Source of the DNA: a virus
DNA length: 34,549 nt
Virus record (IMG/VR): IMGVR_UViG_3300042691_010785
Location: 1 to 34,549 of that record
Strand: one strand, 5' to 3'
Shown in pieces: positions 15,681 to 32,076 of the stretch. The number at the start of each line of letters is the position of its first letter. Position 1 is the stretch's first letter. The translations under genes and the position numbers were made by a program. The notes beneath the pieces were generated by a model, which saw nothing but the letters and a program-made list of their open reading frames with translations, was not told where the DNA came from and did not search any database.

Positions 15681-18428
15681 ATGCCATCATTGCGCCCTGC
15701 GCTTTACGCTTTCAATCGTGGGCTAGTGTCGGCAACGGCGCTCGGTCGCGTTGATATTGAGCGCTTGCGCTTGTCTGCTGCTCAACAAACAAACTGGTTC
15801 CCGCGTTCGCTTGGTCCTATGTCCTTGAGGCCCGGCACGCAGTATCTCTTGTCTACACGCAGCGATGCAAAGGCGCGCTATATCCCGTTTTTCTTTTCGA
15901 CAACGGATAAGGCGCTTTTGGAATGCACAGCGTCATTCCTTCGGCCTCTCGTTAATCAGGCCGTCATTACGCGCGCCAGCGTGGCTACAGTCGTCACAAA
16001 CGGCGACTTCTCGTCAGGTACGGGCTGGACTATCACGGGCAGCGCGGGTGGGTCTGGTGCCATTTCAGGTGGCGTCCTTACGCTGTCCTGCGTGCCTATT
16101 GATAGTTCCGTTACATGCTCGCGAACGGTCACGGTTGCCAGCGGGGACCAGAACGTAGAGCACGCCTATAGGATCATTGTTACGCGGGGGCCTGTTACGT
16201 TCCGTTGTGGCTCTACGTCAGGTGGTGACAACTACATTTCCGCCACATCACTTGCGACGGGTACGCATTCCCTTGCGTTTACGCCTACGGGCGGAACGGT
16301 TTATATTGAATTTGAAAGCCGCGTTGCGCGTAACGTTATCGTTGATAGCATCGAGGTTGAGGCATCAGGCACACTGACGCTCCCGACGCCGTGGGATAGC
16401 ACGACCGACCTAGATAATATGCGGTGGGCGCAGTCTGGCGATGTGATCTATGTTGCCTGCTTTGGAAATCAGGAGCGCCGAATTGAGAGGCGCACGGCGC
16501 GCTCTTGGTCAATTGTTTTGTCTGAGCCTTTGGATGGCCCGTTTGCGGCGGTTCCAGACGTTGATAACGTAAAACTGACCATCAACAAGGCGCGCGGCAA
16601 CGGGACGTTGACCGCCAATAGGTCTTATTTTGATTCGAGCATGGTCGGCTCGTTGTTCCGGTTCTTCACGCCAGGATATAACTTTACATATGAGATTGGC
16701 GGCGAAGACATCTTTACGCCTGCTATTCGCGTGAATGGCGTTGGCACGGGGCGAAATGTCGTCATTACGACGACCGGAACATGGTCAGGAACGCTCACTG
16801 TCCAAAAGTCTTTGATCGGTGAAGAATCTGGATTCTATACAAACTCGTCCATAACCACGAACACAACGACAACTGTCACGGACACGTCCGACAATACCGT
16901 TATGTGGCTGCGCGTCGGGTTTGCCTCTGGCGGGTACACATCTGGCAAGGTTTTGATCAACGTCGTCTTTGGCAATGGCGGCGCGGCTCCACGACGTGGG
17001 GCGGCTGCTGTTGTTACTGCGCAAGGCGGGCGTGTTGGCATCTGCCGCATTATCTCGGTGACGGATTCGACGCACGCAGAAGTGGACATCATGTCGGACT
17101 TCTCATCAACGGAATCGACTGACGATTGGACCCGATCTGAATGGAACGAAACAAAGGGCTGGCCTTCTGCTGTAGCCTTTCATGAAGGGCGGTTATTCCG
17201 CGCCGGGCGTGATCGCGTGTGGGGTTCCGTCTCAGATTCGTTCATGTCCTTTGACCCTGCGGTTGAGGGCGATAGCGGGCCTATCCAACGCTCTATTGGT
17301 TATGGTCCCGTACAGACGATCAATTGGATTCTGCCTTTAACTCGCCTGCTCCTTGGGACGGAAGCTGCGGAAGTGGCGGTGCGTTCGTCGTCGTTTGATG
17401 AGCCTTTGACGCCTACCAATTTTTCCTTGAAAGATGTCTCCACCTACGGAAGTGCTCGCCTACCTGCGGTAAAGATCGACAATCGCGGCATTTATGTCGA
17501 GAAATCTGGCGCGCGGGTTATGGAACTACTTTATCAAGTTGAGGCGAACGACTTCACATCCCGCGACATGACGCAGCTTGTGCCTGACTTGAACCAGGGT
17601 AAGGCAATCGTGGATGTCGTGGTTCAACGCCAGCCAGATACGCGCATCCATTGCGTGCGAGATGACGGGTCTGTAGCTATCCTTGTGAGTGAGCCTGCCG
17701 AAGACGTGAAGTCGTGGGTTCTTTTCGAGACGGATGGCATTGTTGAGGGTGCGGTTGTCCTCCCCGGCAGTGAGGAAGATGAGGTTTATTACATCGTCAA
17801 GCGCACCATCAATAGCTCAACAAAGCGGTATCTTGAGCGGTTTGCCCTTGAAAGCGAGTGCGTCGGCGGCACCCTTAACAAGCAAATGGATTGCTTCAAA
17901 ACCTATTCAGGATCAGCCACAACGACCATAACCGGCCTATCCCACCTTGAAGGCAAGGCGGTTGTCGTGTGGGCAGATGGCAAGGACTTCTCGCCTGACA
18001 CGGGCGAGGCAAGGACGCAGACAACGTACACCGTGACCAGTGGGCAAATCACGCTTCCGTCAGCGGTGACGAGCGCAGTTGTTGGGCTTCCTTATGAGGC
18101 GCGCTACAAGTCAGCAAAGCTGGCGTATGCGGCGGCGGGCGGCACGGCTCTGACGCGCAAAAAGACGGTCAAGCAGATCGGCCTGTTGCTCAACAAGACG
18201 CATCACAAGGGCCTTTATTTTGGGACTGACTTCGACATCATGGACGGACTGCCAGCGGTTGAGGAAGGCACAACCGTTGCGGCAGATACCATCTACGATG
18301 ACTACGATCAGGATATGACGACCATGCCGCATACATGGTCAACGGATTCGCGCTTGTGCCTTTTGGCAAAGGCCCCGCGTCCTTGCACTGTAGTTGCGGC
18401 AATCATCGACATTGAGACGCATGGATGA
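15681..18428 (+). CDS. Tail tubular protein B-like (tail nozzle)
   Basis: 915 aa. The N-terminus F-N-R-G-L-V-S-A-T-A-L-G-R-V-D-I-E-R and R-P-G-T-Q-Y-L-L matches the conserved entry of podoviral nozzle proteins (T7 gp12-like). The middle holds an insertion of beta-rich carbohydrate-binding-like sequence (residues about 105-235). The later part contains E-G-R-L-F-R-A-G and W-G-S-V-S-D-S-F, conserved propeller segments of this family. At the C-terminus an E-x-x-Y-x-V propeller strand follows. Its length is above T7 gp12 but normal for alphaproteobacterial podophages. It overlaps the next gene by ATGA. Confidence 0.85.
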   Translation: MPSLRPALYAFNRGLVSATALGRVDIERLRLSAAQQTNWFPRSLGPMSLRPGTQYLLSTRSDAKARYIPFFFSTTDKALLECTASFLRPLVNQAVITRASVATVVTNGDFSSGTGWTITGSAGGSGAISGGVLTLSCVPIDSSVTCSRTVTVASGDQNVEHAYRIIVTRGPVTFRCGSTSGGDNYISATSLATGTHSLAFTPTGGTVYIEFESRVARNVIVDSIEVEASGTLTLPTPWDSTTDLDNMRWAQSGDVIYVACFGNQERRIERRTARSWSIVLSEPLDGPFAAVPDVDNVKLTINKARGNGTLTANRSYFDSSMVGSLFRFFTPGYNFTYEIGGEDIFTPAIRVNGVGTGRNVVITTTGTWSGTLTVQKSLIGEESGFYTNSSITTNTTTTVTDTSDNTVMWLRVGFASGGYTSGKVLINVVFGNGGAAPRRGAAAVVTAQGGRVGICRIISVTDSTHAEVDIMSDFSSTESTDDWTRSEWNETKGWPSAVAFHEGRLFRAGRDRVWGSVSDSFMSFDPAVEGDSGPIQRSIGYGPVQTINWILPLTRLLLGTEAAEVAVRSSSFDEPLTPTNFSLKDVSTYGSARLPAVKIDNRGIYVEKSGARVMELLYQVEANDFTSRDMTQLVPDLNQGKAIVDVVVQRQPDTRIHCVRDDGSVAILVSEPAEDVKSWVLFETDGIVEGAVVLPGSEEDEVYYIVKRTINSSTKRYLERFALESECVGGTLNKQMDCFKTYSGSATTTITGLSHLEGKAVVVWADGKDFSPDTGEARTQTTYTVTSGQITLPSAVTSAVVGLPYEARYKSAKLAYAAAGGTALTRKKTVKQIGLLLNKTHHKGLYFGTDFDIMDGLPAVEEGTTVAADTIYDDYDQDMTTMPHTWSTDSRLCLLAKAPRPCTVVAAIIDIETHG

Positions 18429-18787
18429 TTGAGGTTCGCCCTTCGACCATTCAAGACTTGATGGCTCATTGCGGCGACCTTCCACCCTATCGGCTTCGCG
18501 CATTCACTGGATTACTAGACGGGCAGATCATTGCAATCGGTGGTGTTGCTTATCTTCCGAACGGTGCGGTTCTGGCTTTCCTTGATGCAAGCGAAGAAGT
18601 GCGATCCAAGGGCAAGCTGTCTCTCTACAAGACGGCTAAACGACTAGTTGAAGAATGCAAGGCGCGCGGCGTCACCATGATAAACGCCATGCAGCAAGTA
18701 GACATTGAGGCGGCTGAACGCTTCCTTACGCGGCTTGGGTTCAAGCTTTCTGACCCGAAAAACCGCATTTTCACTTTAGAGGCTTAG
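18425..18787 (+). CDS. GNAT-fold protein in the T7 gp13 position
   Basis: 120 aa. The sequence fits a compact GNAT acetyltransferase fold: I-E-V-R-P-S-T-I-Q-D-L, then strands A-I-G-G-V-A-Y-L and A-V-L-A-F-L-D-A, a charged segment where the acetyl-CoA loop would lie, and a closing A-E-R-F-L-T-R-L-G-F helix-strand. The canonical Q/R-x-x-G-x-G/A loop is not clearly present, so catalysis is doubtful. T7 gp13, also GNAT-like, occupies the same place after tail tubular B and is needed for virion assembly. A structural use of a GNAT fold is therefore likely. Confidence 0.7.
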   Translation: MIEVRPSTIQDLMAHCGDLPPYRLRAFTGLLDGQIIAIGGVAYLPNGAVLAFLDASEEVRSKGKLSLYKTAKRLVEECKARGVTMINAMQQVDIEAAERFLTRLGFKLSDPKNRIFTLEA

Positions 18788-18798
18788 GGGGTAATCGA

Positions 18799-19359
18799 AT
18801 GGCGTTTCTCGCAGCGATCCCCGCTGTTATCGCATCCATCGGGTCAACTATTGCCGGGACTGTTGGAACGGCTGCGGCGGCAACCGGGGCCACGGCGTCC
18901 GGTCTTTCAACGGCCCTTGGCGTTCTAGGTACAGGCGCGTCTGCGCTTGGCGCTATCGCTTCCGGCAATGCGGCTCAGGCGGAAGGCAACTACCTCGCCA
19001 AGCAGCAGGAGATGAAAGCAAACGAGGAACGCGCGGTCGGCCAGCAGAAGATGCTGCGCAAACGTGCCGAGGCTGAGCGTTTGCAATCAACCCTTATGGC
19101 CCGTGCGGCGGCTTCCGGTGGCGATACGACCGACGCGGGGCTTGTCCGCTTGGGTGGCGACATTGCCGAGGAAGGCGAGTTTCAGGCGCTCAATGAATTT
19201 GTGCGCGGTGAAAATGCAGCGCGGGGTTATCTCGACATGGCGAAAGCATCTCGCGCCAAAGGCAACGCAGCAGCGCGCATGGCTCCACTAAAGGCAGGCA
19301 TGACAATCCTTGAAGGCGGCTCAAGCTTGTTTGGCAAGTACGCAAAGGGCCTTGGCTAA
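18799..19359 (+). CDS. gp14-like internal virion protein
   Basis: 186 aa. Residues 1-58 are Ala/Gly-rich and hydrophobic with repeated small-residue helices, suited to membrane insertion. The rest is charged helix with the recognisable Y-L-A-K-Q-Q-E-M-K-A-N-E-E and L-M-A-R-A-A-A-S-G-G-D-T-T-D-A segments of gp14-type ejection proteins. These proteins leave the capsid first and form a channel in the outer membrane. The start follows AGGGGGT; the stop overlaps the next ATG by one base. Confidence 0.8.
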   Translation: MAFLAAIPAVIASIGSTIAGTVGTAAAATGATASGLSTALGVLGTGASALGAIASGNAAQAEGNYLAKQQEMKANEERAVGQQKMLRKRAEAERLQSTLMARAAASGGDTTDAGLVRLGGDIAEEGEFQALNEFVRGENAARGYLDMAKASRAKGNAAARMAPLKAGMTILEGGSSLFGKYAKGLG

Positions 19360-21740
19360 TGCCGAGGCTCCCCGATGCCAATGCGCTAGGCGACCGTCGC
19401 CCTATCGAGTCCGGTCGGCCTATGTCTCAGGTTGACCTTGGGGCTGGCGCGCGTGCTTTGTCTGGCGTTGGGCAGTCTTTCTCGCGCATTGGTTCCGATG
19501 TCGGCCAGTATGCGGCCAAGGAAGACGCGGACAATCTGCGCATTGCAACGGCTCGCGCTGATGCCGCATGGCTGTCAAAAGAGAATGAACTTCGCAATTC
19601 CTTCAAGGATGATGACCCCGAGTTCCAGACATGGGGCGACCGCTACCAGAAGGGCGCAGACGAGCGCCGCAAGCAGATTGCCGAAAGCCTGATTACCGAC
19701 CGCCGCGCGCGTGAGTTTTGGCTTGCGCGCCGTGAGGGCGATGTTGTTCGCGGTCGCACTGCGATCGAGGGCAGGGCGGAAACCCGGAACAAGGACTATT
19801 ACTATTCAACCGGCCTTGAATCGCTTGAAAACCTGAAAAAGACCTATGTTGCGGCGGGCGATGATGAAGAAACCCGCAAGCAAGTCATTGAAGCGGGCAA
19901 AGGCGTCGTAGAAGACTTGCGCCGCCGTGGCGTGATTGACGAGACGCGGGCCAAGCAGTTTGGCGCACAATGGGCGGCGGGCGTTGCTGAGACTGAGGTT
20001 TCAAGCCTCAAGCCGCTTGAGCGTATCGCGCTTTTGCAGGGCAACCGCGCCGCATTGAAGGCGCGCGAGTCTGGCGGCAATCCGTCCGTTGTTAATCAGT
20101 TTGGTTACACCGGCCTTTATCAATACGGCGCTCCCCGCTTGCAGTCGCTTGGCGTCTATTCGGCGGGTGACGGCGAGGATATGGGCGCGTGGTCAAAGTC
20201 AGGCCGCAACGCGCCGGGCAAGTGGTCGGGCCGGTTTAACATTCCGGGCTTTCCCGAAGTCAAGACACATGAAGATTTCCGCCGCAACCCAGCCGCGCAA
20301 GAAGCCGTGGCTGAGATTGACGATGCGTTCAAGGATCGTGAGATCGTGCAGAACGGGTTAGAAAAATACATCGGGCAGACGGTCGGCGGTATCCCGATCA
20401 CGCGCGATGGCATCCGTAACATGATCCATTTGGGCGGGGCCGGGGGTGCAAAGCGCGCACTGGAAAGCGGCGGGGCTGAGGATCGGCAGGACGCCAACGG
20501 AACGTCCGTTCTGGAATACGCCCGCCTTGGCGCTGGCGCGTCCTCCAAGAGGGCTGCGCGACTTGCTGAGTACATCGCCCCGGAACGCAGGCAGGCTATC
20601 GCTGTAGCCTCCGAGCGCGAACATGCGGGCTTTGTGCGTCAACAGGAAACGGAGAAGCGCCAGCAGTCGGCGGATGTCGAGGCTTTGAAGCGCGATGATC
20701 TGGCGGCGGTTGAAAGCAAGGGAACAGGGCTTGCGCCTGAAACCCTCTCGCGCGCCAAGATTGCAGAAATACAAGGTGAAGAAGCCGCCCGCCTTTGGGA
20801 GAATGAGCGCGCCCGTGCGCAACGTGTATTCGAGGCGACGGACGGCGTTCAGACGCTTCCAGAGGGTGAGATTTATAGCAGGCTCGAAATTCTGGAACCG
20901 CGCCCGAATGCGCAAGGGTTCACGAATGAAGGCTATGCGGATGACATGGCCGCTTATGAGCGCGCCCGCAAGAAAGCTGACCGCATCGTGCAGGCAAGGC
21001 GCTCTGATCCTGCCCTAGCGGCGGAAGCCTTTGACACGGTGAAAAAGGCCAGAGCCAGCATCCAGTATGACGAGGATCGCGGCGTCCGCATGATCCGCCC
21101 GGAAAGCGCACAGACCATCATTGGCGCACGCCTTGCCGCACAGAGCCAGATGGGTATCGAACAGCCTATGGCGGTGACGAAAAGCGAGGCGGCAGTTATC
21201 GCCCGCAATCTGCGTTCGATTGGTGAAGAAAATCCGGATGGGCTGCGCAAGTTCATGGAAGGCTTGAACCGCACGTATGGCGAATATGCTGATGAGGTTT
21301 TGGCCTCAACAATCCAGCACGCCAACGTCAACCGTGACTTGTCAGTTTTGGCTGGTCAGATTTTGGGGAAGGTTGCGAACGGCACGATGCCGCGTACCGA
21401 CGAAATGCGGAAGGTTGATGCGCTGACGGATGCAGACGGCCTTGAGAACGTCATGCGGGGCGCAAGACCGCCAGCGGTTCCGCCAGTCAGGCGCGATGCT
21501 TTCGGGATGCGCCAGCAGATGCTTATCCGCGACCAAGCGCGGGAAATGGCAAGCCGTGAGCAGCAGCAGGCGCAGGCCCCGGCAACGCCACCCGCGCCAG
21601 CCTTGGCGAACGCGGAAGGCATCGCAGATATTCGCAGGCTTACGCAAGACCCGTCCTTGGCGACGGAGTTTGAAGCCAAGTATGGGCCGGGAACGGCTGC
21701 CGAAGCGCTCAAGCGCTGGCGCACAATGACGGGCCGCTGA
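19359..21740 (+). CDS. Internal virion protein with lytic transglycosylase-like domain
   Basis: 793 aa. Mostly helical and charged, with a lysozyme-like insert around 232-385. It contains A-R-E-S-G-G-N-P (candidate catalytic Glu at 237), Q-F-G-Y-T-G-L-Y-Q-Y-G (about 248-257) and a later G-I-R-N-M-I-H-L-G-G segment, a pattern of phage peptidoglycan hydrolase domains. It would be ejected with the DNA and locally cut the cell wall, as T7 gp16 does. The long helical tails probably stack around the portal. It follows the gp14-like gene and precedes the giant protein. Confidence 0.8.
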   Translation: MPRLPDANALGDRRPIESGRPMSQVDLGAGARALSGVGQSFSRIGSDVGQYAAKEDADNLRIATARADAAWLSKENELRNSFKDDDPEFQTWGDRYQKGADERRKQIAESLITDRRAREFWLARREGDVVRGRTAIEGRAETRNKDYYYSTGLESLENLKKTYVAAGDDEETRKQVIEAGKGVVEDLRRRGVIDETRAKQFGAQWAAGVAETEVSSLKPLERIALLQGNRAALKARESGGNPSVVNQFGYTGLYQYGAPRLQSLGVYSAGDGEDMGAWSKSGRNAPGKWSGRFNIPGFPEVKTHEDFRRNPAAQEAVAEIDDAFKDREIVQNGLEKYIGQTVGGIPITRDGIRNMIHLGGAGGAKRALESGGAEDRQDANGTSVLEYARLGAGASSKRAARLAEYIAPERRQAIAVASEREHAGFVRQQETEKRQQSADVEALKRDDLAAVESKGTGLAPETLSRAKIAEIQGEEAARLWENERARAQRVFEATDGVQTLPEGEIYSRLEILEPRPNAQGFTNEGYADDMAAYERARKKADRIVQARRSDPALAAEAFDTVKKARASIQYDEDRGVRMIRPESAQTIIGARLAAQSQMGIEQPMAVTKSEAAVIARNLRSIGEENPDGLRKFMEGLNRTYGEYADEVLASTIQHANVNRDLSVLAGQILGKVANGTMPRTDEMRKVDALTDADGLENVMRGARPPAVPPVRRDAFGMRQQMLIRDQAREMASREQQQAQAPATPPAPALANAEGIADIRRLTQDPSLATEFEAKYGPGTAAEALKRWRTMTGR

Positions 21741-21743
21741 CGC

Positions 21744-24700
21744 ATGGATGACTTGACCAACATCAACCAAGACGCGGACCTCATCGTACCAGGTGAATTT
21801 GTGTCTGGCGATGAAGCGGCAGCGTCTGATGTGTCGCCTGTCGTCATGCTTGGCGAAATGCAGGACCAACCGCCCGCGCCGCGTCTCAACATGACAAGGC
21901 CGGAGGGCGCAGAGTTTGGTGTCTCGTTCCGTGGCGCGCAACGCCAGAACACGATTGGCGGCGCGCTGTCTCAAGCGGCGGATATTTCGGTTGCTCGTTC
22001 GGCTCCTGCGCCAAGCCTTGATGATAGCGAGCGCACACGCCTTGAGGATTCGATCAATCAAACGGAAAGCCCCTTGCAGGCGTCCGTTGCTCGTCGCGCC
22101 TTGCAGCGTAAGGAACAGCGCGGAACGCTTAGCCCCTCTCGCCGTGAGCAGGCGGAAGAAAGCCTGATCGAGCAAATCGCCTATGAGATGTCCGGGGCCT
22201 TCAAGGCTAAGGAAGGCGTAGCCGGTACATTGCTCGGCTCGGTTGCGAGTTTTGAGAATGTCGGCGGCTTGTCTGGCCTTCTTGTGCGCCAGTTCCCGGC
22301 TTTGGCGTCCCGTCCGATTGTGACGCTGGCGGCTGATGCTGCGTTGACGAATACGCTAACTGACCCTGTTGTGCAGGGCATCCGTTTAGGTTCTGGCGCT
22401 CAGGAAGAATACGACCTGTTGCAGACGGCTCTTGCGCCGGTCGTGGGCGCTGCGGTCGGTGGCGCGCTTGGCGGCGCGGGCGTTGCTGTCTCGCGCGGTC
22501 TTGAACGCATGGAGATAAACCGCGCGCTTGATCCAAGGCTGACGCCGGAAGAACGCGCCGCAGATATGCGGATTGCAAGTGAACAGTTTGCCGTTGACCA
22601 GACGCTTGCGCCGCGTGCTGATGGGCAGTCTAGCCCTGTTGACGTTCGTGCGCCCGCCCCGATGGCTGGCGATGTGCAAGGGCGTTTTGTTGAGCCTACG
22701 TCCGCGTTTGCCGTGGATGTCAATGCGCGCGTAAACGATCCGCAGATGGCTCTGACATTTGGCAAGCCGGGCATCATGGCGCGCGGGCCTGATGCCGATA
22801 ACGTCAAAAAGCAATGGCGCACCGAGACGCCTTACGACGACATCAATGCTATGCTTGCCGCCGCGCCGGGAAACCAAAAGGCCATTGGGGATGCGGGTCG
22901 CCAGATTGCCGACGAACTAGGCGTCGAGTTTCGCGATCCGGGCGTCAAAGCAAACCGCGACCGCATCTTACAGAAGATGGGCGACAAAAAGCCCGGAACG
23001 CTGACCGACATCGTTCGCAGCGGTTTTGACATCAAGACGCCGGAACAGGCGGATGCCATCATTGACCGGTTGGCGCAACGGTTTGAGGTTATAGACGAAG
23101 GCTGGTTTACGACCGTTGGCGGCTATTTCGACCGCAAGTTATATGTACGCTTTCCCGATGGCATGATCGGGGAAGTACAGATGTGGCCGCCCGGCTTGTT
23201 CAAAGCCAAAGAGTTCGATGGCGGTCATAAGTTATATGAGGCAATGCGCGTCCTGCCCGAAGATGATTATGCAGGGCGGGCAAAACTGACGCGCGAAATG
23301 GAGGATTTCTACGCGCCGGTCTTGGCCGCGTTGCCCTCTGATTGGAGAAATGCAATCAGCGGCGGTGGGATCGCTGGCAGATCAAGCGCGCCAAACTTGG
23401 TCGAAAACGCCTCCGGCGTTAGCACGCGTGCCTCGTTGACCCAAGAAGGGTCTGGTGATTTCCAGACGCCATCGTCAAAGACCCGCGCCGTGCCTGCCAA
23501 CCAGACTAGCGGGTCACCGTCGAATGAACCAAATTTCCAAGCAACAGACATTGGGGCAACCTCCAATCGGAATATAGCACCGTCGCCAGCCGCAGACAAC
23601 ACTACAGCTAGTAGTCAACGCGGCGTATTGTCGCAGGCTAGCCTTATTGGGCAGCCCGTCGCCGCCATCCCCGCGCACAGAGTTTCAACCGCGAGCGGCA
23701 CAAGCATTGACGTCGCGCCTATCGTCATGGAAGCGGACGCGCTGCGCACATCGTCGGATGCAGGCTATGACGCCACATTGCAACCCCGTGATCGTGACCG
23801 CGCCGCATCTCAGGCCCAAATCCGCGACATCGCATCCCGCCTTGATCCAGAGCGCCTTGGGTTTTCCGCAGAGGCAGACCGTGGCGCTCCTATCGTTGGC
23901 AATGATGGCATGGTGGAAAGCGGCAACGGTCGCGTTCTTGCGATCCGTCGCGCATATGAGCAGGGCGGCGATGCGGCGGTTAAATATCGCGCTTGGCTGT
24001 CCTCTCAGGGCGTGGACCTGACGCAATACCGCGAGCCTATCCTCGTTCGCCAGCGCTTGACCGACCTTGCGCCAGAACAGCGGCAGGCGTTTACGGTTGA
24101 GGCTAATCAGGCGGCAACCCTCACGATGTCGGCGGGTGAACGGGCTATGTCCGACGCGCGGATGTTGAAGCCCGAGACGCTTGACCTCATCCGCAACGCG
24201 AACGATCTAGGCGCGCAAGGCAATAGGGATTTCACGCAAGCGTTTATCCGTGGCCTGCCTCAGTCAGAGCAAGGCATGATGGCGACGGCTGACGGGGCTT
24301 TGTCATCCGAGGGCCTGACCCGCATTCGCAACGCTGTTTTGGCGAAAGCCTATAGTGACGCCGACCTGATGGCCCGCATTGCGGAAGCCACAAGCGACGA
24401 CATCAAGAGCATTTCAAACGCGCTCATTGCGGCGGCCCCGGATTGGGCGCGCTTCCGTTCTGACGTTGACGCTGGCGTTGTCCGTCCTGATATGGACCTG
24501 ACGCCGTCGCTCATGGAAGCCGTAAAGCGCTCGGCAGACTTGCGCGCCAAGGGGACAACGCTAGACGCCTTCTTGCGCCAGCAGGATGCCTTTGACAGCG
24601 TACCCGCGCCCGTCGAGGCGTGGATGCGTATGTTTTACCAGCCTGACGGCAAACGCGCGGCTGGCGGTCCTGCAATGACCGAACGGCTGCGCGCCTTCGC

Positions 24701-27700
24701 ACAGGAAGCCCGCAAGGTCACAGCAGACGATGGATTAGGCTTTGACTTGCCGCCCGTTCGCGCGGAAGATGTGCAGGCACTAGCCGCAAGGAAAGGCGCA
24801 TCTGATGCAGCCCGAGAAACCACAGCAAACCTTTTCGAGTCCCGCCGCCCTAGCAATGGGCCGAGCAATGGCGCGGATGGGGCAGAAGCAGGGCGACCCG
24901 CAACTCAAGAAAGCGGGCGAGGACTTGAGCCGCAGAGCAATGGCGGCAATCGAGACGGGGCAGGAAACCTTGCCGCCCAAGACACAGAAATAGCGCCTCG
25001 CGTTGAACTTCGCGAACCTGACGTCAAAAAGGCCAGTGACGCCCATCGTGGCACAAGCCACACGCCCGAAAAGCGTGGACAGCAGGAAGTTGAAAGCTTC
25101 CGTTCCGATGTCGAGACATTCCGCACGACTCTAGCCAAGATTGCAGAGACGCCCGAACAAGTGGCGGTTGCAACTCGCCTTGGCGACGAATACCACAATG
25201 CGCTTTTAACCAAACTGGAAAGCATTTGGTCAACACGCTCCGGCGTGGCGAGCGCTATGATTGCTGGCCCTGCGAAGTTTAAGCAGACGACCAAAGCCAA
25301 CAACGCCTATGAGGCAAAGGTCAAAGACCTTGTTGAATGGCAAAAGAAGCAAATCAAGGACGCAGAAAAGACCGTTAAGGGTTTGCGTACAGAAGGCCAA
25401 CAGCTAGAGGAAAACTGGAAAAGCGCTCGCGCCGCGTTGGTCCACAATATCAACGTCATTCGCGGCATCGACTCTAACGATGGCCCGTGGAAGGGGTTTA
25501 ACCGCCCGACGTTTGTTAACTCGACGGCAAAGATCATTCGCACGCTTGACGAGCGCGGCCAGCCTCAGAATGTTAAGCGGGCGCTAGATTTTGTTCGTGA
25601 AGCGCAAGCGGCTATGGATAAGCCGATATTTACGGCCAAGCATCCGGCATGGAAGCTAGAGCCTGCTGACGAGATGCTGCCGGAAGCGCTTGCCCGGCGC
25701 GGCGGCAACGCTGTCACACAGAAGCCCCTAGCAAACCAACTAGAAGCGGGCCGCCCCAAGGCAGATCAAGGCACAAGCCCCGCTGCTGACGCTAAGGTGA
25801 CGCGCCTTGAGGACATCTCCCGCCAGCTTGTCGATTCATTTGAGACAATCGCCCGCACTGGTCGCGTCCAACCTGGCGCAAGGGGTATATACAAGACCCG
25901 TTCCGGCGTTGTCCGCGTTCGTTCTGTTTCCGACTTTGACACGCTCGCGCATGAAGTCGGCCATGCGCTCCATCTTGGCGGTGGGGCCAAGTCTGACTTT
26001 GACGCCATCGTGCGCGCAAACGTCAGTGAATTGCAGCAGTTCGGCGCTGGCGACGGCGCACAAGGGAACGCGGAAGGTTTTGCCAACCTCTTTCACGCCT
26101 ATGTGACCAATCTGCCTTTTGCGCAGATGAACTATCCCAACGCAACCGCCGCGCTTGATACCCTGATGCGGTCACGCTTTCCTGAGCAGATGAAAGCGGT
26201 CGAAGATGTCAGGCAGATGCTTGATGTTCTGCATCGTGCGCCTTCGCTTGAAGTCGTCCGTAGCGACCAGATTACGACGCAGCCGCCCAAGTTTGGCGAC
26301 CGCTTTCGCGAACTGGTTGCAGGCGACAAGGACCCGCAGGGCCGCGTTGTCTATTCGGCTTTGGATTCGCTCTACACGCAGTCTGTTGACAGCAATCATC
26401 CCGTTTATCGGGCGGTTGAGAACCTTGCCAACGTCGCAAAGGCCAACGGCAAGCCGGTTGATCTAAAGCCGTTGGATGACGCCTACATCCTTGCCCGCCG
26501 CCTCCCCGGCTCTCACGGGCGCGCTGACGCCATGTTGAAGTACGGGGTGGTCCCGGCAGGCAAGGTAAGCCCGGAAGGGCCTAGCCTGTCCTCTGGCATC
26601 GAAAAGGCGCTAGGCAAGAAATGGGACGCATCGCAGTTTGAAGACTTTGGCGCATACCTGACCGCTCGCCGTATGGTGGCTGAATATCAGCGCTTCTTTG
26701 CTGGTCAATTGGAGCGACCGCCCGGCAAGTTGTCTCTTTCGGATTACCAGAAAGCCGTTGCCGATTTTGAGGCCGCTAACCCGTCATTTAAGGCGGGTGC
26801 GGATGACATCTATGTATTCCAGAAAAACCACCTTAAGCGCCAGTTTGATAAGGGGCTAGTCACAAAGGAATATTACGAGACGGCCATTCAGCGCGCGGAC
26901 TACGTTCCGGCCATGCGCGATATGCGCAATTTTGAAGACACTGAGGCAAAAGTTCCGGGTGTTTCCGCTGGTGGGCAGGGGCTACTTTCCCGCACCATTA
27001 TGAAGCGCTTCCGGGGGTCTGACCGTCCGGTTATCAATCCGCTGGAATCCATCTTCAAGCGCGTGCATGACATTGAGTTTGTCATTGCCCGAAACGATTC
27101 AATCAATGCTCTTGCTCGCCTTGCTGATGAGGCTGGGCCGGGTGCAGGGTTCATCTACGAGGACATACCGAGCAACCAGCTAAAAGGCCAGCGCGTCGAT
27201 GTCATGGAAGCGCTCAAGAGTGCGGGCAAGACGGCGGGGCTTGATAGCGCCGACCTGACGCAGATGATGCTACAGGTCGAGGACGTTCTAGGCGATAGCA
27301 CGTGGGCGACCATCTTTCGGCAAGAGCCGATCAAGGAAGGCGCGGAGCCGATCATTTACCGTTGGGTGAATGGCGAACGTCGCGCGGGGCGCTTGGGTGA
27401 CGACCGCTTTGCGCGTGAATTGCACCATGCCCTAACGGCCATGAGCGATTATGAGAAGGACTTTCTGACAACCGTTCTGGCGATGGCGTCGGGTATCCTG
27501 CGAACCGGCATCACGAAAAGCCCTGACTTTATTCTGACGAACGCCATTCGTGACCAATCGACCGCGATGCTGACGGCGGGGCGGAAATACATCCCGTTTG
27601 TGTCGATGGCGAAGGGGCTAATCGAGGCCGTCAAGAAAACAGACGAGGCTATTGAGTTCGCCGGGCAGGGTGGCCTTGCTGGCGGGGCAATTGTAGAGGC

Positions 27701-29375
27701 AATCCAGTCAAGCGCCTTTGGTCGCAACGTCAAATCCTTGCAGGGCGGTAATTGGTTCGGTGAAGTGTTGAAGGCTTTCGAGATTTCGGAAACTGGAACG
27801 CGCCTCGGTCTGTACAAGAGCTACATCGAACAAGCCAAGGCTATGGGGTTCGATGACGAGAATGCCGCGCTGTATGCTGCCTTCAAAGCGGACGATTACA
27901 TTGATTTCCGGAAACATGGTGCGGCAATGGGTATTCCCCGCCGCATTTTCACGTTCCTCAACGCAGCCATCCAAGGCACAGACAGGGAAGTGCGCGCCGC
28001 TGGCGACTGGCCGGTGTTAGAGGCCAAGCGCGCCCGTGGCGAGACGTTGACAACCACAGAATTGGACCGTCTCAAGGATGCGCGTATCGGTGTTTTGAGG
28101 CTTGCCACGATGGGTGTTGTCCTTGGCTCTGGATTGGCGTTCCTTAACTCAGAAAATGAGAACGTTCAGAACGCCTCAAAATACTGGAAGGATACAAACT
28201 TCCTCTTTTCGGTGAACGGCACTGACTTCGCTATCCCAAAGGGGTTTGGCGTCGTGCAGTCAGTCGTCAATCTTTTTGAGCGTGGCGCAGAGTTCTCTAT
28301 GCGCGGCGATCCTACGATTGCGACGGATTGGCTAGAGGGGATGGCTAAGGCGTTTATGATGCCTGCATCTAACCCGGCGCTGACGCTTATGTACGATCTG
28401 CCCGCGAACTATGACCGCTTCCGTGACCGCAACATTGTCCCCTATTATATGCAGGGATGGGATGCGCCTGAGCAGTATTCCAAATACACATCAAGCCTTG
28501 CGCGCCAGCTTTCGGCGGCTGCGAACATGGTCGGCGTAAAGCTTTCTCCAATGAAGGTTGATTACACGATCCAGCAGCTTGGTGGCGGCATGGCCCGCGA
28601 TGCGCTGTTTGGGTGGGATGTGATGATGGGGACTGACCGTCCCGAGAAGCAAATTTATGACTACCCTGTGTTGCGCCGCTTTGTGAAGAACTTGGAACGT
28701 GGAAGCCGCGCGGCGGAAGACTTCAACAAGCTGGTGGGTGAAAAGACCGGCTCATATGAGCAGGCAGAAAATGCCTTCCGTGGAAAGATCAACAACGGTG
28801 AGCGTGCGGCGGCGAGTGAATATCTGCGCAATCTCAAGGAAGATGAACGCGCATGGGTAACATTGAACACATTGGGGTTTGACACTAAGGCCAAGCAGAT
28901 GCACCCGATGCTTAACGCCCGCGAGCGCGTGGCTTTGTCAAATGGCATGGTTCGCCAGTTGGTCAACGGAAACGTCATCAAGGAGGATGACCTAGACCGC
29001 CGCGACCTGACCCGCTCGCGCCGCGATGCTGAGCCGATCCCACTAACGCCGCGTGAGCGCGCTCTGTTGCAGGAGGAATTTCTGTCCTATTCCGTCGCCA
29101 CGGCGCGCAACGCAATGGTCACGGTCGGAGCAAAGGGAACAACCGGCTTAAAGCCGATGGATGCAACAAAGCTTGTTGAGCGCATCCGCATCATATCGCC
29201 TGCTGTTGCTGACGAGTTCACAGCCCGCATGGAGCGCAAGAACCTTCCATCTGCGGAGACGACCGCCCTCGCATGGCCTGAGATGAAGCGCAGGCTTCTT
29301 GTCGATGGTGAAAATGCGGACCTAGACGATCTAATCCCGGCTGACGTAAAGCGCCGCGCGCGCCGTCGCAACTAA
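21744..29375 (+). CDS. Giant polyvalent internal virion protein (RelA/SpoT-like, DdrB/ParB-like, zincin, LPD38-like)
   Basis: 2543 aa. Residues about 145-260: Ala/Gly-rich, probably membrane-active. About 355-545: RelA/SpoT-like pattern (D422, R425, G460-Y461, E477-V-Q479, H495, Y498). About 548-640: Ser/Asn/Pro linker. About 655-980: DdrB/ParB-like domain with Q-P-R-D-R-D-R (680-686) and E-S-G-N-G-R (725-730). About 1110-1300: helical region with M-I-A-G-P-A-K-F (1172-1179). Zincin H1403-E-V-G-H1407 with candidate third ligand E1444. About 1900-2300: LPD38-like core with N1933-A-I-R-D, F-L-N-A-A-I-Q-G (N2073) and I-P-K-G (2164-2167). Chains of this kind were described as polyvalent proteins of phages and conjugative elements, injected with DNA to counter host defences. 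That role is inferred here from domains and position. Confidence 0.85.
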   Translation: MDDLTNINQDADLIVPGEFVSGDEAAASDVSPVVMLGEMQDQPPAPRLNMTRPEGAEFGVSFRGAQRQNTIGGALSQAADISVARSAPAPSLDDSERTRLEDSINQTESPLQASVARRALQRKEQRGTLSPSRREQAEESLIEQIAYEMSGAFKAKEGVAGTLLGSVASFENVGGLSGLLVRQFPALASRPIVTLAADAALTNTLTDPVVQGIRLGSGAQEEYDLLQTALAPVVGAAVGGALGGAGVAVSRGLERMEINRALDPRLTPEERAADMRIASEQFAVDQTLAPRADGQSSPVDVRAPAPMAGDVQGRFVEPTSAFAVDVNARVNDPQMALTFGKPGIMARGPDADNVKKQWRTETPYDDINAMLAAAPGNQKAIGDAGRQIADELGVEFRDPGVKANRDRILQKMGDKKPGTLTDIVRSGFDIKTPEQADAIIDRLAQRFEVIDEGWFTTVGGYFDRKLYVRFPDGMIGEVQMWPPGLFKAKEFDGGHKLYEAMRVLPEDDYAGRAKLTREMEDFYAPVLAALPSDWRNAISGGGIAGRSSAPNLVENASGVSTRASLTQEGSGDFQTPSSKTRAVPANQTSGSPSNEPNFQATDIGATSNRNIAPSPAADNTTASSQRGVLSQASLIGQPVAAIPAHRVSTASGTSIDVAPIVMEADALRTSSDAGYDATLQPRDRDRAASQAQIRDIASRLDPERLGFSAEADRGAPIVGNDGMVESGNGRVLAIRRAYEQGGDAAVKYRAWLSSQGVDLTQYREPILVRQRLTDLAPEQRQAFTVEANQAATLTMSAGERAMSDARMLKPETLDLIRNANDLGAQGNRDFTQAFIRGLPQSEQGMMATADGALSSEGLTRIRNAVLAKAYSDADLMARIAEATSDDIKSISNALIAAAPDWARFRSDVDAGVVRPDMDLTPSLMEAVKRSADLRAKGTTLDAFLRQQDAFDSVPAPVEAWMRMFYQPDGKRAAGGPAMTERLRAFAQEARKVTADDGLGFDLPPVRAEDVQALAARKGASDAARETTANLFESRRPSNGPSNGADGAEAGRPATQESGRGLEPQSNGGNRDGAGNLAAQDTEIAPRVELREPDVKKASDAHRGTSHTPEKRGQQEVESFRSDVETFRTTLAKIAETPEQVAVATRLGDEYHNALLTKLESIWSTRSGVASAMIAGPAKFKQTTKANNAYEAKVKDLVEWQKKQIKDAEKTVKGLRTEGQQLEENWKSARAALVHNINVIRGIDSNDGPWKGFNRPTFVNSTAKIIRTLDERGQPQNVKRALDFVREAQAAMDKPIFTAKHPAWKLEPADEMLPEALARRGGNAVTQKPLANQLEAGRPKADQGTSPAADAKVTRLEDISRQLVDSFETIARTGRVQPGARGIYKTRSGVVRVRSVSDFDTLAHEVGHALHLGGGAKSDFDAIVRANVSELQQFGAGDGAQGNAEGFANLFHAYVTNLPFAQMNYPNATAALDTLMRSRFPEQMKAVEDVRQMLDVLHRAPSLEVVRSDQITTQPPKFGDRFRELVAGDKDPQGRVVYSALDSLYTQSVDSNHPVYRAVENLANVAKANGKPVDLKPLDDAYILARRLPGSHGRADAMLKYGVVPAGKVSPEGPSLSSGIEKALGKKWDASQFEDFGAYLTARRMVAEYQRFFAGQLERPPGKLSLSDYQKAVADFEAANPSFKAGADDIYVFQKNHLKRQFDKGLVTKEYYETAIQRADYVPAMRDMRNFEDTEAKVPGVSAGGQGLLSRTIMKRFRGSDRPVINPLESIFKRVHDIEFVIARNDSINALARLADEAGPGAGFIYEDIPSNQLKGQRVDVMEALKSAGKTAGLDSADLTQMMLQVEDVLGDSTWATIFRQEPIKEGAEPIIYRWVNGERRAGRLGDDRFARELHHALTAMSDYEKDFLTTVLAMASGILRTGITKSPDFILTNAIRDQSTAMLTAGRKYIPFVSMAKGLIEAVKKTDEAIEFAGQGGLAGGAIVEAIQSSAFGRNVKSLQGGNWFGEVLKAFEISETGTRLGLYKSYIEQAKAMGFDDENAALYAAFKADDYIDFRKHGAAMGIPRRIFTFLNAAIQGTDREVRAAGDWPVLEAKRARGETLTTTELDRLKDARIGVLRLATMGVVLGSGLAFLNSENENVQNASKYWKDTNFLFSVNGTDFAIPKGFGVVQSVVNLFERGAEFSMRGDPTIATDWLEGMAKAFMMPASNPALTLMYDLPANYDRFRDRNIVPYYMQGWDAPEQYSKYTSSLARQLSAAANMVGVKLSPMKVDYTIQQLGGGMARDALFGWDVMMGTDRPEKQIYDYPVLRRFVKNLERGSRAAEDFNKLVGEKTGSYEQAENAFRGKINNGERAAASEYLRNLKEDERAWVTLNTLGFDTKAKQMHPMLNARERVALSNGMVRQLVNGNVIKEDDLDRRDLTRSRRDAEPIPLTPRERALLQEEFLSYSVATARNAMVTVGAKGTTGLKPMDATKLVERIRIISPAVADEFTARMERKNLPSAETTALAWPEMKRRLLVDGENADLDDLIPADVKRRARRRN

Positions 29376-29713: not shown

Positions 29714-29741
29714 TTTAAGCCTTTCTAAACCACGCAATCGC

Positions 29742-29770
29742 GCGAGGATAACCGCCTATGGCTTCTGCAT
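29742..29770 (-). promoter_or_regulatory. Weak candidate promoter for the antisense lipoprotein
   Basis: On the minus strand, TTGATG and TATCCT with a 17-base spacer lie just upstream of the lipoprotein, overlapping the start of the tailspike gene on the other strand. Each box matches four of six consensus bases. It is offered only because the gene must be transcribed separately from its neighbours. Confidence 0.25.
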
Positions 29771-32076
29771 CAAATGACCGCTTTTCCGTCCTTCGGGAGG
29801 GTGTCGGCGTCAAGGCACCCTGCCGGGTGGCGACAACGGCTAACATCACGCTATCAGGCGAGCAAACGATTGACGGCGTTGCTGTTGTGTCGGGTGACCG
29901 TGTTTTGGTTAAAAACCAGACGGATACTACGCAAAACGGGATTTATAATTGCTCAACAGGCAATTGGACCCGAACGCTTGACTTCGACAATTCTGATGAG
30001 ATTGCCCAAGGGACAATGATTATTGTCGCCAACGGGACGACACAGAACGATAGCTTCTGGATGATTGCCACGGCAAGCCCGGCAATTGGTTCCGCGCTTA
30101 CGTTCTCACAGATCACAGACCCCATTGCCGCTGTTGATGTCATCGAATCCGCCAGGGATGACGCTATTGATGAGGTCGAGGCGGCGGCTAACGAAGCGGG
30201 GGCCGCGCAAGTCGCTGTTGTAAACGCCGCTGGCGTTGCAAATGCTGTTATCGTTGCGCAGGCTAGGTCAGCAGCGATTTACGCATCAACAGCCGACGCG
30301 CTTTCAAACGGAGTTGCAAGCTTCACGTCTATAGTTGGCGGCTCTGGCGGGACTAATGGCAGCTTTGATGTTGCGTTTTCGGGTGGCGGCGGGACGGGCG
30401 CAGCGGCGCGGTTTACAGTCGCAAGCGGGGCGCTCGTCTCCATAACCTTACTCAACAAAGGCCGTGGTTATACATCAGCGCCAACTCTGGCCTTTACTGC
30501 TTCGTCCGGTCTTACTGGTGCAAGCGCAACTGCGGTTATTGGTCAAAACCAGCCAGCCGGTACGCTCTTTGCCGTTTCCCCCACGAACGGGGGTATCTTT
30601 GACGTTTACGAAAACGTATCCGGCACGGCCACGTTGCGTGGTTCCGCTCCTTCTATTTCGTTGGCCGATACTGCCGCAACGGACAAGGGCATTTCGACCG
30701 GCTTCCTTGACGCCGATAGCCGCGTATTGATGGCGTTTTCTCCTGCGGGGCGGTTGCAGGATAGCGAGGTCTTCGCGCGCGATGTGGTCGAGCAGGCGGG
30801 GGCTATTGCACCGTATTTCGTTCTGCCTGCGCCGCACGGCTTCACGATCAGCCAGAAAAACTTCAATATCGCTTATATGATGGGCCAATCTCTTGGCGCG
30901 GGCTATTGGTCTCTTGCGAACGGAACGGGCGCAACCTCAATTCTGACGACCACGCAGCCTTATAATAACAAGATGCTCGCAAAGATTTGGACCCCAACGG
31001 CGGGCGCTGGTTCATTCTCTGCGGCTATTGAGCAAATCCAGTCAACGCACTACGGCGAAACCGGTATGGCGGCGTCTGTGAACCAAACGCGCTTTATGCG
31101 TGATGGCTTTGTTCCTCCGTGGGCGTCATGGACTCAGGATTGGATTGTCGGTTCAAACGCTGTGGTTTCAACAGCGTTGACGGGTATTGTGCAGGGTACG
31201 ACGCCTTATAACAACGCAATAGCTGCTGTCACGCAGATGCGGGCCTTGGCTGGCACATCCTGTGCATTGCGTGATGTGCAGCTAGAGCACGGCGAAAGCG
31301 ATATGCTCGCGGGTACGAGTCAAGCGACATACCTCGCTGGCATCCAGACGTTGCTTGACAACATACAGACAGACTTTTCAGCTATAACAGGGCAGACCGA
31401 TACGATATTCCTGCTTATGTCTCAGATTGCAACGCAGAGCATTTATTCTACATCATCGGACCTTGTTCCGACGACTGCGCTTGCAATGCTAGAAGCGCAT
31501 GAAAACAATACTGATATGTTCTTGATAGGTCCAAAATATCAATATCAGTATTCGCGCAACGACAAGGGCGTGTCACGTGACGGAATCCACCTTTCAAATC
31601 ACGGTTATCGCCATCATGGATGCAAAGTCGGGCAGGTTCGCCATCACCTTTATAATCTAAAGCGCCGATGGGAGCCGCTACGCCCGTCCAAGCTCACGCA
31701 AATCAGCCGAGATACACTGGAAATTGAGTTTATTGTTTTGTGTCCACCGCTTGTGTTTGACACAAAGACGGTTAGCAATCCCGGTGACATGGGCTTTGTA
31801 GTTTATAACAGCGGCGGAACTGAGCAATCAATTGATCGCGTTTGGATTGCTGGCCCGAATAAGGTTCGTATTAAGACAGTTAGCGCGTTGCCGTCAAATT
31901 GGGAAGTTAGCTACGCTTATAAGGTTTATAACAGGACGTGTGGATCACACAGATTTAGCGGCTCCCGTGGGAATCTGCGCGATAGCGACAACACGCCGAG
32001 CCTTTATAACGACGCGCAAGGCAAGCCATACCCGATGTGGAATTGGTGTGTTCTGTTCCGCAAGACGGAGACCTAA
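29758..32076 (+). CDS. Tailspike with SGNH (acetyl)esterase domain
   Basis: 772 aa. N-terminal residues 18-120 match the virion-anchoring pattern of podoviral fibres (R-V-A-T-T-A-N-I-T-L-S-G, T-I-D-G-V, G-D-R-V-L-V-K, N-G-I-Y). About 185-265 is a Gly-rich domain ending G-R-G-Y-T-S-A-P-T-L-A-F, another shared fibre module. The enzyme begins near 365: block I M-G-Q-S-L-G-A-G with S378 nucleophile, H511-G-E-S-D and the closing D608-G-I-H611 pair. This set is that of SGNH/sialate-O-acetylesterase-type hydrolases, so the spike probably deacetylates surface polysaccharide. The C-terminal 130 residues are beta-rich. It replaces the endoglycosidase usual in such spikes. Confidence 0.85.
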   Translation: MASASNDRFSVLREGVGVKAPCRVATTANITLSGEQTIDGVAVVSGDRVLVKNQTDTTQNGIYNCSTGNWTRTLDFDNSDEIAQGTMIIVANGTTQNDSFWMIATASPAIGSALTFSQITDPIAAVDVIESARDDAIDEVEAAANEAGAAQVAVVNAAGVANAVIVAQARSAAIYASTADALSNGVASFTSIVGGSGGTNGSFDVAFSGGGGTGAAARFTVASGALVSITLLNKGRGYTSAPTLAFTASSGLTGASATAVIGQNQPAGTLFAVSPTNGGIFDVYENVSGTATLRGSAPSISLADTAATDKGISTGFLDADSRVLMAFSPAGRLQDSEVFARDVVEQAGAIAPYFVLPAPHGFTISQKNFNIAYMMGQSLGAGYWSLANGTGATSILTTTQPYNNKMLAKIWTPTAGAGSFSAAIEQIQSTHYGETGMAASVNQTRFMRDGFVPPWASWTQDWIVGSNAVVSTALTGIVQGTTPYNNAIAAVTQMRALAGTSCALRDVQLEHGESDMLAGTSQATYLAGIQTLLDNIQTDFSAITGQTDTIFLLMSQIATQSIYSTSSDLVPTTALAMLEAHENNTDMFLIGPKYQYQYSRNDKGVSRDGIHLSNHGYRHHGCKVGQVRHHLYNLKRRWEPLRPSKLTQISRDTLEIEFIVLCPPLVFDTKTVSNPGDMGFVVYNSGGTEQSIDRVWIAGPNKVRIKTVSALPSNWEVSYAYKVYNRTCGSHRFSGSRGNLRDSDNTPSLYNDAQGKPYPMWNWCVLFRKTET

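What the first reader, a model, noticed from the sequence alone, without database searches (positions are those of the whole stretch)
21744..29375. Composite polyvalent protein occupying about a fifth of the window
Seen: one unbroken frame combines a hydrophobic N-terminus, RelA/SpoT-like region, DdrB/ParB-like domain (Q-P-R-D-R-D-R, E-S-G-N-G-R), a HEVGH zincin and a large LPD38-like end. Established: such domain chains were described as polyvalent proteins of phages and conjugative elements, injected with DNA to counter host defences. The order RelA-like then ParB-like then zincin in a podovirus is one I do not recall. It suggests a modular first-response kit delivered in the virion.
Basis: partly seen in the sequence, partly recalled or inferred. 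Interest (0 to 1): 0.7.

Follow-up and report, generated by a model that had tools for sequence, protein, structure and literature searches.

The report
Podovirus ejection protein carrying alarmone synthetase
A short-tailed phage appears to carry inside its particle one giant protein whose swappable front half holds an enzyme that makes bacterial stress-signal nucleotides, so the virus may flip the cell's stress alarm as it enters.

Summary
One 2,543-aa ORF (21744-29375) contains a RelA/SpoT-like domain (residues ~346-541), a DdrB-like ParB domain, an HEVGH zincin and an LPD38 C-terminus. Pfam sees only ParB and LPD38. A 23-sequence profile matches solved alarmone synthetases (Tas1/Apk1, E 2.7e-28), and an AlphaFold model (pLDDT 94) matches the same fold with catalytic residues kept. 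The zincin model resembles known HExxH metalloproteases.

The gene lies between internal virion proteins and the tail fibre, as in epsilon15 and Pelagibacter podoviruses. Zincin plus LPD38 is a shared carrier (28 of 28 zincin-seeded contigs); the N-terminal cargo varies: DNA methylase, ParB, or, here alone, synthetase plus ParB. A scan seeded on synthetase motifs found 41 viral loci, 31 with the podoviral tail-tube gene on the same locus; they form one supported lineage.

Polyvalent proteins, including RelA+ParB chains in Helicobacter prophages, were described in 2017, and MuF (p)ppApp toxins of prophages are known, so this is a new variant. Virion location is inferred from mass-spectrometry-proven relatives (P1 DdrB, JC1 gp69). 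Activity, product (GTP- or ATP-derived), cleavage and effect on the host are untested.

The parts
21744..29375 (+). Giant polyvalent protein gene, 2,543 aa
21744..22778 (+). N-terminal region (res 1-345), Gly/Ala-rich, two mildly hydrophobic stretches (res ~163-181, 231-249)
   Evidence: no Pfam hit
22779..23366 (+). SYNTH domain (RelA/SpoT-like alarmone synthetase), res 346-541; D422, R425, Y461, E477, Q479, K489 conserved
23676..24764 (+). ParB-containing region shared with relatives (res ~645-1007); Pfam ddrB-ParB at res 652-771
25791..26240 (+). Zincin-like metallopeptidase domain (res ~1350-1499), HEVGH at res 1403-1407 and EGFA at res ~1444
26295..28988 (+). C-terminal carrier region (res ~1518-2415) with LPD38 at res 2141-2310
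15054..15677 (+). Tail tube A-like protein (phrog_394)
15681..18428 (+). Tail tube B-like protein (phrog_376; epsilon15 gp12 homologue)
18425..18787 (+). Internal virion protein (phrog_308; epsilon15 gp13 position)
18799..19359 (+). Internal virion protein (phrog_418; epsilon15 gp14 homologue)
19359..21740 (+). 793-aa protein with weak tail-lysozyme match and weak similarity to epsilon15 gp15 (lytic transglycosylase position)
29758..32076 (+). Tail fibre protein following the giant gene

Best explanation
The gene encodes an ejection (pilot) protein of a short-tailed phage, in the genomic slot of epsilon15 gp16. Its C-terminal half (zincin plus LPD38 region) is a shared carrier; its N-terminal half is exchangeable cargo, here an alarmone synthetase (SYNTH) domain and a DdrB-like ParB domain. 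Proposed action: (1) the protein is packaged in the head [inferred; shown by mass spectrometry for the relatives P1 DdrB and JC1 gp69]; (2) it leaves with the internal virion proteins and reaches the cytoplasm [inferred]; (3) the zincin, lying at the cargo/carrier border, cuts the chain and frees the cargo [inferred; P1 DdrB is known to be processed]; (4) the SYNTH domain moves pyrophosphate from ATP to the 3'-OH of GTP/GDP (about 45%) or ATP/ADP (about 35%), raising (p)ppGpp or (p)ppApp and draining the pool within minutes, which slows host stable-RNA, replication or translation activity before phage genes are expressed [inferred; fold and catalytic residues shown here]; (5) the ParB domain acts on DNA or NTPs [inferred from the family].
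For: Profile of the family hits Tas1/Apk1 E 2.7e-28, SaSAS (named SaEAS in PMC12691689) 2.2e-10, YwaC 1.4e-8 and RelA/Rel proteins. Model of res 336-541: pLDDT 94, pTM 0.89; VIA Z 15.4, rmsd 2.6 over 161 residues to Tas1, Z 14.0 to the Streptomyces exported synthetase; rows 1-26 of the list are all RSH/SAS/CapRel proteins. Seven active-site positions are identical to the window in 44 of 45 podoviral-type domains. Gene order tail-tube A, tail-tube B, two internal virion proteins, gp15-like, giant, tail fibre agrees with epsilon15, HTVC034P and L084. 31 of 41 viral loci found by synthetase motifs carry a tail-tube-B gene, against 0 of 13 loci of the other phage synthetases L010-L022. 28 of 28 zincin-seeded loci hold zincin then LPD38 region, with different N-termini. 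LPD38-bearing JC1 gp69 was found in virions with 51 unique peptides (its match to this carrier); P1 DdrB with 39.
Against: No direct evidence of virion location, cleavage or activity. PF04607 does not detect the window domain. The syn3 site is D-x-K, neither the S-x-H given for RSH nor the G-x-N given for Apk2, so the acceptor nucleotide is not predictable. No HD_4 alarmone hydrolase in the record, unlike Apk2 loci, so what protects the producing cell is unexplained. No BLASTP similarity of the giant to epsilon15 gp16 itself. A lytic phage that drains GTP or ATP could harm its own replication.
Confidence: 0.55

Rival explanations
1. The SYNTH domain is an injected polymorphic-toxin warhead, like the MuF-Apk2 toxins of prophages: its main use is to kill or stall competitors or cells that will not give a productive infection, not to manage the productive host.
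For: MuF-fused SYNTH domains exist in the same set (L009: portal, Acb1, MuF, SYNTH) and fall in a group next to the podoviral ones; MuF-Apk2 prophage toxins make (p)ppApp and are toxic in E. coli (PMC12226406, text part 1 and passages).
Against: No HD_4 hydrolase in the record and I recognised no cognate immunity gene; the Apk syn3 G-x-N is absent; the protein lies in the ejection locus, not in MuF; several relatives carry ParB or methylase cargo instead, which are not classic warheads.
Confidence: 0.17
2. Counter-defence: the alarmone or the change in nucleotide pools blocks host immune systems that work through nucleotides or toxic small alarmone synthetases, and the ParB and zincin parts act against other defences.
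For: Polyvalent proteins were proposed for this (PMC5512222, named sections); the related carrier holds DNA methylase cargo in many phages, which fits anti-restriction; P1 DdrB belongs to an anti-restriction set (PMC9024508, passages).
Against: No defence target can be named from sequence; nothing here separates this from host shut-off.
Confidence: 0.17
3. The RelA-like part is a catalytically dead or purely structural piece of a large ejection protein; the whole protein only builds the DNA conduit.
For: It sits in a structural locus; relatives lacking it (HTVC034P 1,229 aa, ct8d5349 1,280 aa) presumably still infect.
Against: K402, D422, Y461, E477, Q479 and K489 are identical in 45 of 45 podoviral-type domains and R425 in 44 of 45, although the five other sequences of A6 are only 32-50% identical to the window; the module is absent from most carriers, so it is not needed for the conduit.
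Confidence: 0.09
4. Assembly artefact: the ORF joins genes of two phages.
For: The record is one metagenomic contig of a virus with no close relative in the searches made.
Against: The zincin-to-LPD38 half is collinear with Thalassomonas phage BA3 over about 960 residues; L019 has SYNTH then ParB in one ORF, and L049 has ParB then zincin then LPD38; composition is even across modules (GC 0.56-0.62).
Confidence: 0.02

Closest known systems
Polyvalent proteins (Iyer et al. 2017, PMC5512222)
   Same: Several enzymatic domains in one phage polypeptide near virion genes; DdrB-ParB, zincin, RelA/SpoT and LPD38 all named there; RelA-SpoT plus DdrB-ParB in Helicobacter prophage proteins.
   Different: Here the synthetase sits on a zincin-LPD38 carrier in an epsilon15/HTVC010P-type podovirus; the 2017 text names Spirochaetes and epsilonproteobacterial (pro)phages and MuF fusions for RelA/SpoT.
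Tas1/Apk1, Apk2 and exported alarmone synthetases (PMC12226406, PMC12691689)
   Same: SYNTH fold, D-x-x-R and E-x-Q active-site residues; delivery out of the producing cell by an injection or export device.
   Different: D-x-K at syn3 instead of G-x-N; no HD_4 hydrolase in the record; delivery presumably by podoviral ejection; separate, well-supported branch from the Vibrionaceae exported type.
P1 DdrB
   Same: DdrB-type ParB domain with a C-terminal zincin (PMC5512222); head location shown for P1 (PMC9024508, table passage).
   Different: P1 is a myovirus; no synthetase or LPD38 reported in the passages read.
Burkholderia podovirus JC1 gp69 (DarB-like, 4,515 aa)
   Same: Podoviral giant protein ending in LPD38; my carrier profile hits it; found in virions (PMC9144972, passages).
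   Different: Its table lists an LT-like domain, LPD3 and helicase/methylase-type matches; my synthetase and ParB profiles find nothing in it.
epsilon15 gp16 and the gp16-like protein of Alcaligenes phage Piluca
   Same: Same gene slot; Piluca gp16 carries a ParB region 40% identical over 308 residues.
   Different: Neither was seen to carry a synthetase (Piluca gp16); epsilon15 gp16 shows no BLASTP similarity to the window protein.

Membership tests
Polyvalent protein | Two or more domains of unlike activity in one polypeptide of a phage or conjugative element | tested here: met
   ParB and LPD38 by Pfam; SYNTH by profile and fold; zincin by alignment and fold
Polyvalent protein | Delivered into the host with the DNA | not testable with these tools
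   Only synteny and mass-spectrometry-proven relatives
RelA/SpoT-type SYNTH (alarmone synthetase) superfamily | SYNTH fold | tested here: met
   pLDDT 94; Z 15.4 to Tas1; Foldseek E 2.1e-8
RelA/SpoT-type SYNTH (alarmone synthetase) superfamily | Catalytic residues (D-x-x-R, Y before syn3, E-x-Q, basic residues) | tested here: met
   D422, R425, Y461, E477, Q479, K402, K489; correspondence to Apk1 R330/E382 from PMC12691689 passages
RelA/SpoT-type SYNTH (alarmone synthetase) superfamily | Pfam PF04607 hit (a detection threshold, not a structural definition) | tested here: not met
   0 hits on the window sequence; 16 of 23 family members hit at E <= 1, best 1.1e-5. I therefore file it in the superfamily by fold, not in PF04607
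RelA/SpoT-type SYNTH (alarmone synthetase) superfamily | Pyrophosphokinase activity | not testable with these tools
   needs enzyme assay
Apk ((p)ppApp toxin) family | syn3 G-x-N signature | tested here: not met
   D463-R464-K465; signature as given in PMC12226406
Apk ((p)ppApp toxin) family | Linked HD-type hydrolase (Aph1) | tested here: not met
   0 HD_4 matches in the record at E <= 10; 11 of 14 control genomes ring. The record may be incomplete; IapK-type immunity was not searched
DdrB-like ParB | PF18763 above cut-off | tested here: met
   115.6 bits against 27.6
DdrB-like ParB | DNase or NTPase activity | not testable with these tools
   predicted in PMC5512222, section 15
Zincin metallopeptidase | HExxH plus downstream Glu ligand | tested here: met
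   Invariant H64 E65 H68 and E105 in 18 of 18 rows
Zincin metallopeptidase | Zincin fold | tested here: met
   pLDDT 84.9; best VIA Z 9.1, about 8.4-8.8 to lethal factor and Pro-Pro endopeptidases, rmsd mostly 3.4-5.3; Foldseek alone weak, best E 0.034; profile E 0.0028
Zincin metallopeptidase | Proteolytic activity | not testable with these tools
   needs protein
LPD38 | PF18857 above cut-off | tested here: met
   88.8 bits against 27
Podoviral ejection protein (gp16 slot) | Position after the internal virion proteins and before the tail fibre | tested here: met
Podoviral ejection protein (gp16 slot) | Sequence similarity to epsilon15 gp16 | tested here: inconclusive
   No BLASTP hit at E 0.05; ejection proteins are known to be highly divergent (PMC8954989, passages)
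Podoviral ejection protein (gp16 slot) | Presence in the virion and ejection | not testable with these tools
   needs virion proteomics

The most novel reading that the evidence does not exclude
A distinct lineage of alarmone synthetases has become standing cargo of podoviral ejection proteins: short-tailed phages inject an enzyme that makes (p)ppGpp or (p)ppApp with the first virion proteins, so the host's stringent-response state is set by the particle before any phage gene is read. The few copies expected could suffice: at the ~100,000 turnovers per minute reported for exported synthetases, 4-6 copies would make 4-6 x 10^5 molecules a minute, about 1 mM per minute in a 1 fL cell.
Probability: 0.4. 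Interest if true: 0.82.

Novelty: new variant of a known kind. Interest (0 to 1): 0.62.

Why it matters
If active, this would be an alarmone synthetase delivered by virion ejection in short-tailed phages, with related domains in dozens of environmental viral contigs, and would give a direct, timed way to test whether phages set the host stress response at entry. It also gives the polyvalent-protein idea a testable layout: a conserved zincin-LPD38 carrier with exchangeable N-terminal cargo, the protease at the border. Two sequenced strains (Rhodoblastus acidophilus DSM 137, Salipiger marinus DSM 26424) hold prophage-like loci with the synthetase, so the idea can be tested without isolating the window's phage.

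Tried and rejected
Direct Pfam detection of the RelA-like part failed on the window sequence. Single-sequence PDB search with that region gave only chance hits. tblastn with it found no phage record at E 0.1 and one plasmid record at E 0.03, which opened the family. The zincin alone found no viral contig by close search; an alignment did. BLASTP of the giant against epsilon15 gp16 and gp17 gave nothing, so the link with gp16 rests on position only.

A conserved basic C-terminal tail, as reported for T7 gp16 relatives, was tested: the window ends strongly basic (+5 over the last ten residues) but the 14 other named proteins range from -1 to +3 and 12 carrier contigs from -1 to +4, so I dropped it. 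The published name RelA/SpoT on Synechococcus phage MinM2 WEV89212 was not confirmed: no synthetase profile hit, no Pfam hit. I could not verify that the Vibrionaceae-type proteins (L007, L026-L037) are orthologues of VpEAS/RelV; that is recalled likeness plus leader-like N-termini in most of them (L028 shows none in its frame). In the tree they lie apart from the podoviral lineage, so VpEAS specificity cannot be carried over. CapRel and FaRel2 appear lower in the VIA list (Z 11.0-11.5 and 6.8); tRNA as acceptor is not excluded. The ParB-like motif seen by eye in the L003 protein has no Pfam support.

Limits and bias: the 41-locus set was seeded with six sequences, of which L003, L023 and L025 carry the tail-tube gene; several contigs are near-copies or apparent repeats of earlier loci (L078 and L023; L105 and L025). 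For the tree, 67 domains were cut to 51 rows at 90% identity; it is a quick tree with SH-aLRT support only, and long branches are flagged. In the 41, the ten loci without a tail-tube hit are L009, L080, L094, L102, L103, L104, L108, L109, L112 and L113; L102, L104 and L112 are ORFs open at the contig edge. Profiles for searches were built from my own small alignments that include the window. Paper searches showed no paper on an alarmone synthetase in a podoviral ejection protein; only open-licence papers are held.

Full report
What is there. The ORF at 21744-29375 is intact, 2,543 aa. Chance of a stop-free run of that length at the window's composition is about 1e-42. Pfam finds ddrB-ParB at residues 652-771 (1.9e-33) and LPD38 at 2141-2310 (6.1e-25), nothing else.

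The RelA-like part. It is invisible to Pfam in this sequence. The nearest sequences were one viral contig (L003, 46-48% identity) and a small Photobacterium protein that itself hits PF04607 at 3.1e-4, below the curated cut-off. With these as seed, 15 viral and 15 bacterial loci were found. The 23-row alignment has invariant K402, K411, D422, Y461, D463, E477, Q479, K489 and Y498 in window numbering. Its profile hits Tas1 (Apk1) at 2.7e-28, the Streptomyces exported synthetase at 2.2e-10, YwaC at 1.4e-8, then RelA and Rel proteins. 16 of the 23 members match PF04607 at E <= 1; the window does not. AlphaFold gives pLDDT 94.0 and pTM 0.89 for residues 336-541. Foldseek's first hit is Tas1 (2.1e-8). 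VIA gives Z 15.4, rmsd 2.6, 161 residues for Tas1 and Z 14.0, rmsd 3.0, 168 residues for the exported synthetase, with the first 26 rows all RSH, SAS or CapRel proteins. The syn3 site reads G-Y-F-D-R-K. PMC12226406 (passages) gives S-x-H for guanosine and G-x-N for adenosine enzymes, and reports that swapping motifs did not change specificity, so the product stays open.

The zincin. All 18 rows of the alignment (window and 17 relatives) keep HExxH and E-G-F-A. The model (pLDDT 84.9) gives VIA Z 7.1-9.1 in a list of 50 rows made up of lethal factor, Certhrax and Pro-Pro endopeptidase/Zmp1 chains. Foldseek alone is weak (best E 0.034) and the profile gives 0.0028. PMC5512222 (passage) linked the N4 polyvalent zincin to lethal factor too.

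Place in the genome. Window order: tail tube A (phrog_394), tail tube B (phrog_376), phrog_308 and phrog_418 internal virion proteins, a gp15-like protein, the giant, the tail fibre. The same order stands in epsilon15 (gp11 to gp17, tailspike), in Pelagibacter phage HTVC034P and in contig L084. Portal identity is 24.7-28.4% in the 25 rows listed, mostly Pelagibacter podoviruses. The giant is therefore in the epsilon15 gp16 slot; no gp17-like gene was seen before the fibre.

Carrier and cargo. Against Thalassomonas phage BA3, residues 1351-2314 align collinearly (E 2.5e-18) while BLASTP found no match between the N-terminal halves; BA3 has a methyltransferase there. A scan seeded on the zincin gave 28 contigs. 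All 28 also hold the LPD38 region after the zincin, 27 in one ORF and one (L071) split by an in-frame stop. Among these 28, 17 have the methylase module, 2 have ParB (one of them with methylase), 0 have the synthetase, and 10 have no N-terminal module that my profiles know; Pfam adds transglycosylase, methylase and helicase matches in one of the ten, L073. HTVC034P and ct8d5349 have the carrier with no zincin hit. Against L002, a phage of the same type, the ParB region is 68-70% identical while tail tube A is 46%, tail tube B 39-45% and the internal virion proteins 34-36%; outside the ParB region BLASTP found nothing between the two giants. That pattern is what module exchange would give.

A podoviral synthetase lineage. 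A scan seeded with six synthetase sequences gave 41 viral loci. 31 of the 41 carry a tail-tube-B gene; of the earlier viral loci L010-L022, 0 of 13 do. In many of these the synthetase sits towards the C-terminus of a protein of about 1,000-1,500 aa; in L084 that protein lies between the gp15-like and a gp17-like gene (phrog_684). In the tree (51 rows after dereplication of 67, quick method) these fall in one branch of 29 rows with SH-aLRT 99, apart from the Vibrionaceae exported type and other phage synthetases; the window pairs with L008 (the same contig as L003) and L077. Seven active-site positions are all as in the window in 44 of 45 rows; L111 differs at R425. ParB and synthetase share an ORF in the window and in L017, L019, L020, L025, L075, L079, L095, L105 and L112. 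The synthetase comes first only in the window and L019.

Is it in the virion? Not testable here. JC1 gp69, a podoviral giant with LPD38, gave 51 unique peptides in purified virions (PMC9144972, passages), and my carrier profile hits its C-terminus at 1.3e-25 in a one-sequence search. P1 DdrB, namesake of the ParB domain, gave 39 (PMC9024508, table passage), and PMC5512222 (sections 8 and 15) says it is processed, probably by its own zincin.

How it most likely works. The particle ejects the chain; the zincin frees the cargo; the synthetase changes the nucleotide state of the new host at once. Four to six copies (T7 gp16 numbers, PMC8954989, passages) at about 100,000 per minute (PMC12691689, passages) would make roughly 4-6 x 10^5 molecules a minute, near 1 mM per minute in 1 fL: enough to matter. 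This arithmetic is mine, and the rate is that of other enzymes. The host is not known; the nearest bacterial carriers of the domain (Rhodoblastus, Salipiger, a Hyphomicrobiales bacterium) make an alphaproteobacterium likely, by inference.

What is known and new. Polyvalent proteins, including RelA-SpoT with DdrB-ParB in Helicobacter prophages, are known (PMC5512222, passages and sections 8, 15, 22). MuF-borne (p)ppApp synthetases of prophages are known (PMC12226406). New here: a synthetase-plus-ParB cargo on a zincin-LPD38 carrier in a podovirus, and evidence that such synthetases recur as a lineage in podoviral ejection loci. No paper on this was found in the ten searches named under Tried and rejected. 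I rate it a new variant of a known kind.

Noticed in passing
window 29372-29737 (-): Small reverse-strand ORF between the giant and the tail fibre with a lipoprotein-like leader (LAGC lipobox by eye); could be a surface-exclusion lipoprotein.
   Followed up: no
window 32080-33261: 393-aa protein with DUF5074 repeat matches (E 5.9e-10), after the tail fibre.
   Followed up: no
window 68-748: Replication-initiation-like protein (phrog_1408, 1.9e-14) at the left end.
   Followed up: no
L009 751-5265: One viral ORF chains portal, Acb1 anti-CBASS, MuF and a C-terminal synthetase domain.
   Followed up: partly
L018 4340-18007: ORF of at least 4,556 aa with two synthetase copies, a zeta-toxin domain and a GNAT match.
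   Followed up: no
L031, L033, L034, L037: These Photobacterium loci carry two synthetase paralogues each.
   Followed up: no
L071 about 3603: In-frame stop lying between the zincin and the LPD38 carrier region in one contig.
   Followed up: partly
L004 2185-10596 (Synechococcus phage MinM2 WEV89212): Annotated RelA/SpoT in the public record, but neither Pfam nor the synthetase profile supports it.
   Followed up: yes
L073 1058-13117: 4,020-aa ORF with transglycosylase, Eco57I/N6 methylase, helicase, zincin and LPD38 region in one chain.
   Followed up: partly
L025 7124-10939: Salipiger marinus prophage-like protein joining an epsilon15 gp15-like stretch, ParB and synthetase in one chain.
   Followed up: partly
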